The notes under the pieces: generated by a model
The model's database searches: none
Told to the model about the DNA's origin: nothing
Seen by the model: only the letters and a program-made list of their open reading frames with translations
Part shown: positions 18,137 through 62,455 of the stretch, piece after piece
Layout: every line of letters starts with the position of its first letter
Numbering within the stretch: position 1 is the stretch's first letter
Program-made: the position numbers and the translations under genes
Assembly: GCA_005884575.1 (NCBI GenBank)
Contig: VAWW01000015.1
Coordinates: forward strand, 1-64,000
DNA: 64,000 nt
DNA from: Actinomycetota bacterium
Lineage (GTDB): Bacteria > Actinomycetota > Thermoleophilia > Gaiellales > Gaiellaceae
Direction: 5' to 3'

Positions 18137-18172
18137 GCCTCCGCCGAGCCGGCGGCCACCCATGGCCCGAAC

Positions 18173-18210
18173 AGCCACGACCCGGGACCTCCCCCGGTCC
18201 AGGTCCCGGG
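18173..18210. repeat. REP-like palindrome, copy 2 (left of RAYT)
   Basis: A perfect 10-bp inverted repeat (CCCGGGACCT at 18181-18190, AGGTCCCGGG at 18201-18210) with a 10-nt loop, preceded by the conserved flank AGCCACGA. It lies in the 167-bp gap between hemE and the RAYT gene. The copy on the other side of the RAYT gene is inverted and matches over 38 bp with two mismatches. Confidence 0.85.
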
Positions 18211-18303
18211 GCGTGTCTGTCGGGATCCTGTCACGTGTGCCGAAAGTGTGACTCTCGGTCGTCGCGGGCTTCCGGAGCGCGCCGGCGCGCGTACCGTGGC
18301 CGT

Positions 18304-18981
18304 ATGCCGAAGAAGCCGCGCAGCGAGCTCGCCCCGGGGCTCGTTCACGTCACGAACCGCGGCAATAGGCGCGCGGACATCATCACAGCCGAGCGCGACG
18401 TCCGCCGCTTCGAGGACTTTCTCGAGGATGCCGTGCGTCGCTCGGGTGTCACTTGCCACGCGTTTTGCCTCATGCCGAACCACGTCCATCTCGTCTTCGA
18501 GGTCGAGACGATCGAGGCGCTGTCGAAGACGATGCAACGGCTGAACGGCAGGTACGCGCAGTGGTTCAACCTGACCTATGGCTTCAACGGTCATCTCTTC
18601 CAGGGTCCGTACGGCGCCGTCGCCGCACAGTCTGAGTCGCACGCACTCGAAATGATCCGGTACGTCGTTCTGAACCCGGTTCGCGCAGGTTTATGCGCCC
18701 GTCCCGCGGCGTGGCCGTGGAGCAGCTACCTCGCGACAATCGGCGCGGTCGAGAAGCCGCGGTACCTGACGATCGACTGGGTCCTCGGCCTCTTCGCCGA
18801 CGACGTCACGCTCGCACGCGAACGCTACAAGACCTTCGTCGCCGAAGGGATCGTGGCTCCGACGGCCCTCTCCCGAAAGCCGCTGTCCCGGGACCTGGAC
18901 CGGGGGAGGACCCGGGTCATGGCTCCGCTGGCCGGTGTGCCGCCGGTGTTTCCGGTGCCTCCGGTAGCGTCGCGCGCATGA
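18304..18981 (+). CDS. REP-associated tyrosine transposase (RAYT, Y1/IS200-like)
   Basis: A 225-residue Y1 HUH nuclease. MPNHVHLVFE holds the His-Val-His metal site at residues 60-62, and YVVLNPVRAGL supplies the candidate catalytic Tyr near 120. HVTNRGNRRADII at the N-terminus is typical of RAYTs, which nick single-stranded REP hairpins rather than move a full insertion sequence. Inverted REP-like palindromes lie upstream (18173-18210) and inside the 3' end of the gene (18887-18924), the latter encoding about a dozen C-terminal residues. The stop overlaps the hemH ATG (ATGA), so hemH may be translated from the same message. Confidence 0.88.
   Translation: MPKKPRSELAPGLVHVTNRGNRRADIITAERDVRRFEDFLEDAVRRSGVTCHAFCLMPNHVHLVFEVETIEALSKTMQRLNGRYAQWFNLTYGFNGHLFQGPYGAVAAQSESHALEMIRYVVLNPVRAGLCARPAAWPWSSYLATIGAVEKPRYLTIDWVLGLFADDVTLARERYKTFVAEGIVAPTALSRKPLSRDLDRGRTRVMAPLAGVPPVFPVPPVASRA
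18887..18924. repeat. REP-like palindrome, copy 3 (right of RAYT, inverted)
   Basis: Reverse-orientation copy of the element at 18173-18210. One arm is CCCGGGACCT, the other differs by one base (AGGACCCGGG), and the AGCCATGA flank reads on the complementary strand. It lies within the RAYT coding sequence, about 60 nt before its stop. Confidence 0.85.
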
Positions 18982-60626: not shown

Positions 60627-61220
60627 ATGTTCGTCACGTTCGAAGGACTCGACGGATCGGGGAAGTCGACGCAGGCGGAGCTCCTGCGCGCGGCGCTCGA
60701 GGCGGAGGGCCGCGAGGTCGTGCTGGCGCGCGACCCCGGCGGAACCGAGCTGGGCGAGAAGATCCGCGGGCTGCTGCTCGGCGGCGGCGAGATCACGCCG
60801 TGGGCGGAAGCCGCGCTCTTCGCAGCGGCGCGCGCCGAGCTCGTCGAGCGCGTGATTGAGCCCGCGCTCCAGCGCGACGCGGACGTCGTCTGCGACCGCT
60901 ACGTCGACTCGTCGCTCGCGTACCAGGGAATCGCGCGCGGGCTCGGCGTCGAGCGCGTGCTCGAGCTCAACCTGCAGGCGATTCGGGCACTGCTCCCCGA
61001 CCGGACGATCCTCCTGCTTCTCGATCCCGACGTGTCGGTGCAGCGTGCCGGCGAGACCGATCGGATCGAGCGTGAGGGCGGAGACTTCCGCCGCCGCGTC
61101 GACGCCGCGTACCGCGACCTCGCCGAGATGTTCCCGCGCCGCATCCTCACCGCCGACGGCACGCAGCCGGCGGAACAGCTCTCGATGTTGATCCGTGGAC
61201 AGCTTCGAGACCTTTCCTGA
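60627..61220 (+). CDS. tmk: Thymidylate kinase
   Basis: A 197-residue dTMP kinase. The P-loop is GLDGSGKST at residues 7-15, the DR motif ARDPGG near 36, and DRYVDSSLAYQGIARGLG the substrate/LID region. ATG 60627. It overlaps holB by 26 bp, and the pair tmk-holB is common in actinobacteria and other bacteria. Confidence 0.93.
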   Translation: MFVTFEGLDGSGKSTQAELLRAALEAEGREVVLARDPGGTELGEKIRGLLLGGGEITPWAEAALFAAARAELVERVIEPALQRDADVVCDRYVDSSLAYQGIARGLGVERVLELNLQAIRALLPDRTILLLLDPDVSVQRAGETDRIEREGGDFRRRVDAAYRDLAEMFPRRILTADGTQPAEQLSMLIRGQLRDLS

Positions 61221-62280
61221 GCAGGCGGAGGCGAAGCGCCTCCTCCGCGCGGCATTGAACGAGGGGCCTGCGCACGCGTACCTGCTGCACGGCCCGCCTG
61301 GCGTCGGCAAGCGCGCGGCCGCGACGGCGTTCGCCGGGGAGCTGCTGGGAGACGCGGACCGCGTCGCGCGCGGCGCGCACCCTGACCTTTACGTGCTCGA
61401 GCCGGTCGGCGACCAGATCCGCATCGACGACATCCGCGAGCTGCGGCGCGACCTGCACATGCGTCCGTTCGAGGCGTCGCGCCGCGTCTACGTGATCGTC
61501 GGCGCGGACACGATGAACGAGGACGCAGCCGACGCGCTGCTGAAGGATCTCGAGGAGCCGCCTTCCTACGCAGTCATCCTCCTCGTTGCGAGCGACCTCG
61601 GACCGCTGCCCGAGACGATCCGGTCGCGCTGCCAGCTCATCCCCTTCCGCCGCCTCTCCGAGAAGGCGGTGCGCGAGGAGATCGCCGCGCGCGCGCCCGG
61701 ACTCTCGCCGGAGGAGCAGACCGCGCTCGCGCGTGTCGCCGCCGGCCGTCTCGACCGCGCGGGCCGACTCCTCGACCCGGCCGCAGCCAAGCGGCGCGAG
61801 ACGCTGATCGTCGTTGCGCGGTCGGTCTACCTCCAGGCCGGATTCGATCCGGCTGCCGCCGCGGACGCGCTGATCGACGGCGCCTCGGAGCGCGGGGCGG
61901 AGGCGAAGGAGCTCGCCGAGACGCAGGTACGGATGCTCGACCTGACCGAGCGCGAGGTCGAGCAGCGCCTGCGCCGCGCCCAGCGGGGCGCCGAGCGCGA
62001 GGAGCTGCTGGCCGCGCTCGAGGAGCTCGCCGCCTGGTACCGCGACCTCGTCGTCGTGGCGGCGGGTGCGGAGCCCGCCGTGATCCACTTCGACCGCCTG
62101 GCCGAGCTCTCGGAGGACGCGACGCGGGAGCGGATGCTCGGCGCGGAGCGGGCCTGCGAGGTTGTCCGCGAGACCTGGCGGGCCTTCGAGGAGTTCCAGC
62201 TCAACGCGTCGCTCGCCCTGGAGGCTCTGTTCGTGCGGCTGCGGGCCGAATTGGCTGGCCCCTCGCTCGTCTCTGCCTAG
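61195..62280 (+). CDS. holB: DNA polymerase III delta' subunit
   Basis: A 361-residue clamp-loader AAA+ protein. GPPGVGKRAAATAFAG is the P-loop region, ADTMNEDAADALLKDLEEPP the Walker B/sensor I block, and DLGPLPETIRSRCQLIPFRRL the SRC motif. Delta' lacks the zinc cysteines often found in this position (GAHPDLY here). The GTG start 61195 lies within tmk. The stop codon TAG at 62278-62280 is part of a CTAG that is repeated at the other end of the MITE-like element that follows. Confidence 0.9.
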   Translation: MDSFETFPEQAEAKRLLRAALNEGPAHAYLLHGPPGVGKRAAATAFAGELLGDADRVARGAHPDLYVLEPVGDQIRIDDIRELRRDLHMRPFEASRRVYVIVGADTMNEDAADALLKDLEEPPSYAVILLVASDLGPLPETIRSRCQLIPFRRLSEKAVREEIAARAPGLSPEEQTALARVAAGRLDRAGRLLDPAAAKRRETLIVVARSVYLQAGFDPAAAADALIDGASERGAEAKELAETQVRMLDLTEREVEQRLRRAQRGAEREELLAALEELAAWYRDLVVVAAGAEPAVIHFDRLAELSEDATRERMLGAERACEVVRETWRAFEEFQLNASLALEALFVRLRAELAGPSLVSA

Positions 62281-62455
62281 GAACTCGTCTCAAAATCAAG
62301 GACGGGCCGCCCGGCCGCGCTGGGCGGCACGCTGCCGCGTCCTCAGTCCCGCCCGTAGCGATGCTACGAGCGCTCTGCCGCGCGAGCGCGGCCCATTGCA
62401 TCGCACTCGCCCATCGCACCCGGTCAGCGCGTCGTCATTCTGAAACGAGTTCTAG
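62277..62455. mobile_element. MITE-like element with CTAG flanks and terminal inverted repeats
   Basis: CTAG lies at 62277-62280 and again at 62452-62455, bounding 171 bp without coding. The ends are inverted repeats: AACTCGTCTCAAAAT (62282-62296) and the complement AACTCGTTTCAGAAT (62437-62451), 13 of 15 matching. Inside are perfect hairpins: GCCGCCC/GGGCGGC near 62307-62329, CGTAGC/GCTACG near 62354-62368 and GCCGCGC/GCGCGGC near 62377-62392. CTAG is a usual target for IS5/IS427-type elements. No transposase is in the window. Confidence 0.6.

What the first reader, a model, noticed from the sequence alone, without database searches (positions are those of the whole stretch)
62277..62455. 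MITE-like element landing exactly on the holB stop codon
CTAG target-type duplications flank 171 bp with terminal inverted repeats and three internal perfect hairpins. The left CTAG contributes the holB TAG. The insert could act as terminator or carry a promoter for the following secreted-protein/sigma pair.
Basis: partly seen in the sequence, partly recalled or inferred. Interest (0 to 1): 0.55.

Follow-up and report, generated by a model that had tools for sequence, protein, structure and literature searches.

The report
Mobile DNA hairpin at a stop codon
A 172-letter stretch of DNA that folds into one long hairpin has landed on the end of a DNA-replication gene; it belongs to a large family of small mobile hairpins in Actinomycetota, and the family's mutations show that evolution preserves the folded shape of one particular strand.

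Summary
A 172-bp element (62281-62452) sits between two TAGs, the left one being the holB stop. It is a lineage-specific mobile insertion: no relative with a readable holB end has it, and it belongs to a multi-copy family (15 model hits in this genome, at least 150 in Thermoleophilia MAG FR_37; 44 of 60 same-family genomes match). Five occupied/empty pairs between two close species fit a 3-bp, not a 4-bp CTAG, target duplication. Ends abutting stop codons is a family rule.

It is not a plain MITE. A covarying structured core is shared by copies with unrelated arms. Arm mismatches are almost all A.C on one strand, that is G.U on the other (149 against 17), in every gene context, and the G.U strand folds better in 160 of 160 copies. 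So selection acts on one folded strand, arms included; in the window this is the minus strand, antisense to holB. I found no carrier enzyme. Best reading: a non-autonomous element whose spread needs a strand-specific fold, probably ssDNA, moved in trans by an unknown DDE-like enzyme. Promoter or terminator roles are unsupported.

The parts
61195..62280 (+). holB (DNA polymerase III delta-prime type); its TAG stop is the left flank of the element
   Evidence: ORF; PF13177 E 8.8e-36
62278..62280 (.). left copy of the 3-bp target, TAG, also the holB stop codon
   Evidence: sequence; 3-bp rule
62281..62452 (-). the element; the strand given is the one whose fold is selected (-101.1 against -81.4 kcal/mol on +)
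   Evidence: strand
62281..62296 (.). left terminal arm, A-type (GAACTCGTCTCAAAAT)
62437..62452 (.). right terminal arm (ATTCTGAAACGAGTTC)
62325..62390 (+). structured core as found by model R1 (given in the orientation of the model; the selected strand is the other one)
   Evidence: 39.8 bits, E 2.9e-8
62339..62348 (+). conserved internal-loop strand GTCCTCAGTC
   Evidence: invariant or nearly invariant columns
62350..62372 (.). apical hairpin P2, sequence free but paired across copies
62376..62395 (.). mini-hairpin that replaces the second conserved loop strand in this copy; shared with three other copies of the same genome
62453..62455 (.). right copy of the 3-bp target, TAG

Best explanation
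A non-autonomous mobile element of a phylum-wide hairpin family that inserted at the TAG stop of holB in this lineage and duplicated 3 bp. SHOWN: multi-copy family; empty sites; stop-codon adjacency; covarying core; strand-specific selection for pairing along the whole hairpin, arms included; core shared by copies with unrelated arms. INFERRED: the minus strand must fold into one long hairpin at some step of spread. I think the likeliest form is single-stranded DNA exposed in replication or excision, whose paired arms give an enzyme supplied in trans the end structure it needs; the enzyme joins it to a T-R-R-like target by 3-bp staggered cuts (DDE-like). Stop-codon adjacency then follows from a TAA/TAG/TGA-like target plus loss of insertions that break genes; the orientation bias follows because the strongly folding strand is harmful inside an mRNA.
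For: Family and copy number. Absent at holB in relatives. Five empty sites fitting element plus 3 bp; flank letters alike 61 of 111 against 43.0 shuffled, 0 of 2000. Stops at the ends: 43 of 74 and 29 of 49. Core covariation 0.448 against 0.136 shuffled and at most 0.103 slid. Arms A.C 149 against G.T 17 in 141 copies; same sign in all nine gene contexts; in all six arm classes; A-T consensus columns 63 to 7. Minus strand more stable in 160 of 160. Same variant core with different arms in one genome. RT lacking in 11 of 12 copy-bearing genomes.
Against: No mobilising gene was found. The two target copies are imperfect: in the five empty-site cases only one has identical copies and 9 of 15 letters agree (my reading), worse than the flanks. 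Within the core, pair 13-65 is G.T on the plus strand in 57 of 72, the wrong way round unless it is no pair. RNA and ssDNA cannot be told apart with these data. Target letters of the empty sites (CTG, CGA, CTC, TTA, ATA) are not all T-R-R.
Confidence: 0.5

Rival explanations
1. An ordinary MITE of an IS5-type insertion sequence (IS1031 group, T-N-A target; recalled, no call): ends read as double-stranded DNA, core and fold only passengers.
For: Terminal repeats, 3-bp duplication, empty sites, no coding capacity.
Against: Arms differ between copies around one core; arm differences keep pairing on one strand only; no parent with the same ends; PF01609 found in only 7 of 12 copy-bearing genomes, other DDE families not searched.
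Confidence: 0.25
2. A structured RNA useful to the host at gene ends (3'-end stabiliser, terminator or antiterminator) that was spread by some transposon.
For: Position right after stop codons on both sides; strong fold; right arms of B-type copies carry GGAGG-like stretches before start codons (seen).
Against: The selected strand is antisense to codirectional neighbours more often than sense (37 to 13); no promoter or convincing terminator; sites not shared even between close species or at holB.
Confidence: 0.1
3. Moved by a Y1 (HUH) transposase of the RAYT/TIRYT kind acting on one folded DNA strand.
For: Strand-specific hairpin substrate; Y1 genes in 15 of 24 genomes, one inside this window.
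Against: No Y1 match in FR_37, which has at least 150 copies, nor in G058, G384, G010; 8 of 12 genomes with and 7 of 12 without copies have one; the terminal repeats of the window's Y1 gene are unrelated by eye; a target duplication is not expected for this class (recalled).
Confidence: 0.1
4. Copied through RNA by a reverse transcriptase in trans (SINE-like).
For: G.U tolerance on one strand is classic for RNA helices; FR_37 has 13 RVT_1 matches.
Against: No RVT_1 match in the other 11 copy-bearing genomes (several are drafts of 77 to 93% completeness).
Confidence: 0.05

Closest known systems
Bacterial MITE-like palindromic repeats: Correia/NEMIS, ERIC/RU-1, YPAL/RU-2 (PMC2229807, passages read)
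   Same: 100-200 bp, inverted repeats, long stem-loop transcripts, target duplication, no autonomous coding; YPAL/RU-2 168 bp with empty and filled sites
   Different: Different phylum and sequence; conserved covarying core with exchangeable arms; wobble on one strand only; exact abutment to stop codons on both sides. The review's passages do not report the last three
CGTC- and GTAG-tagged REPs and RAYT/TIRYT systems (PMC3733652, abstract, section 16 and passages read)
   Same: High-copy palindromes, mostly between codirectional or convergent genes, plausibly single-strand folded; CGTC REPs also lack a dedicated transposase; GCGTCC occurs twice in our core
   Different: Those units are 20-40 bp with 8-9 bp stems; ours is about 165 bp with a 3-bp duplication and no Y1 association. 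Actinobacteria is not mentioned in that text
IS5/IS1031-type and PIF/Harbinger Tourist-like MITEs (recalled)
   Same: 3-bp T-N-A-like duplication, terminal inverted repeats, short non-coding body
   Different: No parent found; arms vary around a fixed core; strand asymmetry
Integron attC sites (recalled)
   Same: Imperfect hairpin just after stop codons, sequence variable, one strand folded and used
   Different: No attC end boxes by eye; target duplication; not in cassette arrays

Membership tests
MITE (general) | short, non-coding, terminal inverted repeats | tested here: met
   172 bp, 16-nt arms
MITE (general) | many dispersed copies and empty sites | tested here: met
MITE (general) | target duplication | tested here: met
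   3 bp, imperfect
MITE (general) | ends shared with an autonomous element | tested here: not met
   none in 1.16 Mb of loci nor in the listed part of FR_37
IS5/IS427 MITE | 4-bp CTAG target duplication | tested here: not met
   empty sites fit 3 bp
IS5 (IS1031 group) MITE | 3-bp T-N-A duplication and matching IS ends | tested here: inconclusive
   3 bp met; targets only partly T-N-A; no matching IS
REP with RAYT/TIRYT | 20-40 bp palindrome with a GTAG or CGTC tag | tested here: not met
   unit about 165 bp; GCGTCC occurs twice inside the core; definition
REP with RAYT/TIRYT | association with a Y1 transposase gene | tested here: not met
   none in FR_37; 8 of 12 against 7 of 12 genomes
ERIC / YPAL / NEMIS | sequence homology | not tested
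   no search with their sequences was made
Known structured RNA (Rfam 15) | covariance-model match at the element | tested here: not met
   no match at the element in the window nor at gathering score in seven loci
Integron attC | RYYYAAC / GTTRRRY end boxes | tested here: not met
   by eye on the ends printed; motif recalled

The most novel reading that the evidence does not exclude
A new class of mobile element that spreads as a folded single strand: its enzyme recognises a long base-paired hairpin and a conserved internal-loop core by shape, so the terminal arms are free to change sequence as long as one strand pairs. It targets stop-codon-like trinucleotides and has filled Actinomycetota genomes with up to at least 150 copies.
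Probability: 0.3. Interest if true: 0.85.

Novelty: new variant of a known kind. Interest (0 to 1): 0.6.

Why it matters
Small bacterial repeats are usually filed as decayed insertion sequences. Here 154 distinct arm pairs show that pairing of one particular strand is preserved along the whole length while the sequence is not. That points to a single-stranded state in the life of the element and gives a direct test (which strand, and DNA or RNA) of how such elements move. It also shows why elements appear to land on stop codons, and gives a core model that finds copies across a phylum; the paper searches made here list nothing that names this family.

Tried and rejected
CTAG 4-bp duplication: rejected; flush ends and empty sites fit 3 bp. 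Deamination or transcription-coupled mutation as the cause of the strand asymmetry: rejected; same sign in all gene contexts and strongest in A-T consensus columns. Replichore strand bias in FR_37: not significant, 454 of 2000 shuffles as good (only 93 copies printed, of at least 150). Rfam: nothing at the element. IMG/VR with the strict core pattern: 0. Parent search by paired ends: two chance-like pairs only. Association with Y1 or RT genes: none consistent. Hammerhead-like reading of CUGAGGA on the minus strand: by eye only; one base varies and there is no GAAA, so dropped. The family-2 control counted both strands and is invalid; redone with fixed orientation (21 copies: A.C 13, G.T 4; reverse strand more stable in 20). 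The core regex misses the window's own variant core, so absence at holB rests on the model and blastn, not alone. One search crashed on saving after printing; one search failed on a structure string one letter too long and was repeated; one search was a report that did not fit the schema. Alignment A1 held a wrongly cut row for the window copy; A2 left it and 26 other rows out (72 of 98 non-redundant cores used). Gene strands come from open frame plus third-position GC, not from an annotation; 92 of 163 copies had at least one side undecided.

Full report
WHAT IS THERE. The window (G000, contig 29) has holB at 61195-62280 and, right after its TAG stop, a 172-bp inverted-repeat element, 62281-62452, followed by a second TAG. 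Downstream lie an ORF without a Pfam match and a sigma-70 factor. The promoter scan gives nothing and the single terminator-like site is within chance.

IT IS MOBILE AND RECENT HERE. A DNA search of the own genome gives 12 matches, among them a full copy at 84% and a 69-bp arms-only copy flanked by TTA on both sides. In relatives 52 of 101 genomes match, 44 of the 60 of the same family, with only 8 candidates scored per genome. holB itself matches in 57 of 61 genomes; loci were cut for the best 30 places. Of the 29 loci from relatives, 25 have a clear stop and at least 200 bases beyond it, one (L191) was read in a wrong frame, one (L181) has 16 bases beyond, two end before the stop; none shows the element. 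The core model finds it only in the window's own locus among the 30 (39.8 bits; all else 19.1 bits or less), and so does blastn. So the insertion belongs to this lineage. Ten of the 26 readable relatives end holB with TAG anyway (my count), so the stop was probably the target and not brought by the element.

THE FAMILY. From the loci then held I took 163 distinct copies of 165. The core is a stem P1, an internal loop with two nearly invariant strands (GTCCTCRGTC and TCCCTGCGTCCT) and a hairpin P2 whose sequence is free. On 72 sequences, taken from 98 non-redundant ones, 85.8% of cells pair, 16 of 19 pairs change on both sides, and covariation is 0.448 against 0.136 shuffled and at most 0.103 with slid partners. 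A model of this core gives 15 copies in G000, 17 to 35 in four other genomes, and 150 of 150 scored candidates in FR_37. In an even sample of the phylum 24 of 296 genomes match, 13 of them outside the class, some weakly. Rfam has nothing at the element.

STOP CODONS. Of 74 upstream co-oriented genes 43 end within -64 to -60 of the core start, which is the left end of the element; of 49 convergent downstream genes 29 end within +54 to +56 of the core end. Contexts of 163 copies: ++ 37, +- 16, -- 13, -+ 5, at least one side undecided 92. By arm type the codirectional split is 16:4 for type B and 11:5 for type A, so the orientation bias is mostly type B.

EMPTY SITES. In G049 against 1.31 Mb of G058, 22 pattern hits (some spurious) were tested; 11 had both flanks in G058 and five are clean empty sites, flanks 89 to 96% identical. 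Reading the printed sequences by eye, the net insert is element plus 3 bases in four and one base off in the fifth. Empty trinucleotides CTG, CGA, CTC, TTA, ATA stand against left/right copies TTG/CTG, CTA/GGA, TTG/TTC, TTT/CTA, TGA/TGA. The duplication is thus 3 bp but imperfect, which I cannot explain. In 37 A-type copies flush at both ends, 61 of 111 flank letters agree, shuffled mean 43.0, 0 of 2000 as high; 6 of 37 agree fully against 2.3 expected, 38 of 2000 as high. A further case is nested in a second repeat family, TTG on both sides against CTG-like in unoccupied members.

ONE STRAND IS UNDER SELECTION. In the arms of 141 copies the transition mismatches are A.C 149 and G.T 17 on the strand called plus; on the minus strand these A.C are G.U wobbles. 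The sign is the same in all nine gene-context classes (++ 39:2, -- 14:4, -+ 11:0, +- 9:1, and the undecided ones), in all six arm classes (weak in D, 3:2), and in 154 distinct arm pairs, 173:18. In columns with A-T consensus A.C is 63 to 7, in G-C columns 16 to 9, and two arm columns have A.C as their commonest state (48 and 42 of 98); deamination of one strand would not do this. P1 and P2 show the same excess, 69 to 19, largely from two P2 columns. The minus strand folds better in 160 of 160 copies, by 24.7 kcal/mol on average; in 30 sampled copies z is -10.3 for minus and -6.1 for plus, minus lower in 28. In the window it is -101.1 against -81.4. Copies are related, so these counts are not independent; the agreement of separate arm classes is the stronger point. 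Against it: core pair 13-65 is G.T on the plus strand in 57 of 72, and may be no pair.

MODULARITY. Arms fall into several kinds (A GARCTCGT, B AGTGGCCC, C GGAGGGTTTGG, D AGGCTGTTGA, E mixed) around one core. In G000 four copies, the window's among them, share a core in which one loop strand is replaced by a mini-hairpin, though their arms differ. Arms and core therefore exchange or evolve apart.

WHAT MOVES IT. No inward-facing pair of family ends 0.3 to 4.5 kb apart looks like a parent in 1.16 Mb (two chance-like pairs). FR_37 has 156 exact GARCTCGTTTC ends (reversed-pattern control 3); in the listed part, up to about 3.08 Mb, none bracket a listed PF01609 gene. PF01609 is found in 7 of 12 copy-bearing genomes. 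Y1 genes occur in 8 of 12 genomes with and 7 of 12 without copies and not in FR_37; RVT_1 in 1 of 12 with and 1 of 12 without. 'Without' means no hit.

LITERATURE. In the review PMC2229807 (passages) the known bacterial MITE-like repeats have stem-loop transcripts and target duplications; PMC3733652 (abstract, passages and section 16) describes CGTC REPs without a dedicated transposase and TIRYT genes with long terminal repeats. Searches list nothing that names this family; only this library was searched.

CONCLUSION. Mobile: near certain. A strand-specific folded single strand as a functional state: likely. ssDNA rather than RNA, and a DDE-like enzyme in trans: inference from the 3-bp duplication and the lack of RTs.

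Noticed in passing
window 18164-18933: A Y1 (HUH) transposase gene (PF01797, 18343-18666) flanked by 47-nt inverted repeats, 87% complementary, themselves partly palindromic: a TIRYT-type unit by the description in PMC3733652. Its repeats look unrelated to the element.
   Followed up: partly
L260, L258, L288 and others (genus g11): A second hairpin repeat family of about 157 bp with ends AGCCTATTCCG...CGGGATAGGCT and apex CACTACCAGTGCG; the element is nested in it in several loci, and it too folds better on one strand (20 of 21).
   Followed up: partly
FR_37 (G101) 2136044-2136382, 779777-779951, 1206405-1206579: Ends repeated at 164-bp steps on one strand, that is tandem arrays of the element; in L061, L068, L123 and L158 copies sit inside the core of another copy.
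   Followed up: no
L006 1500-1568, L084 6612-6680, L150 5339-5424: Arms-only derivatives of 69 to 85 bp lacking the core; the L006 one has TTA on both sides.
   Followed up: no
L003, L045, L126, L139, L154 (B-type copies): Copies placed exactly between the stop codon of one gene and the start codon of the next, their right arm holding a GGAGG-like stretch at Shine-Dalgarno distance (by eye).
   Followed up: no
L012 1497, L014 1500 (own genome, contigs 36 and 102): Single ends (TTAGAACTCGTTTCA, CTAGAACTCGTCTCA) at apparent gene ends with no second end nearby; remnants or chance.
   Followed up: no
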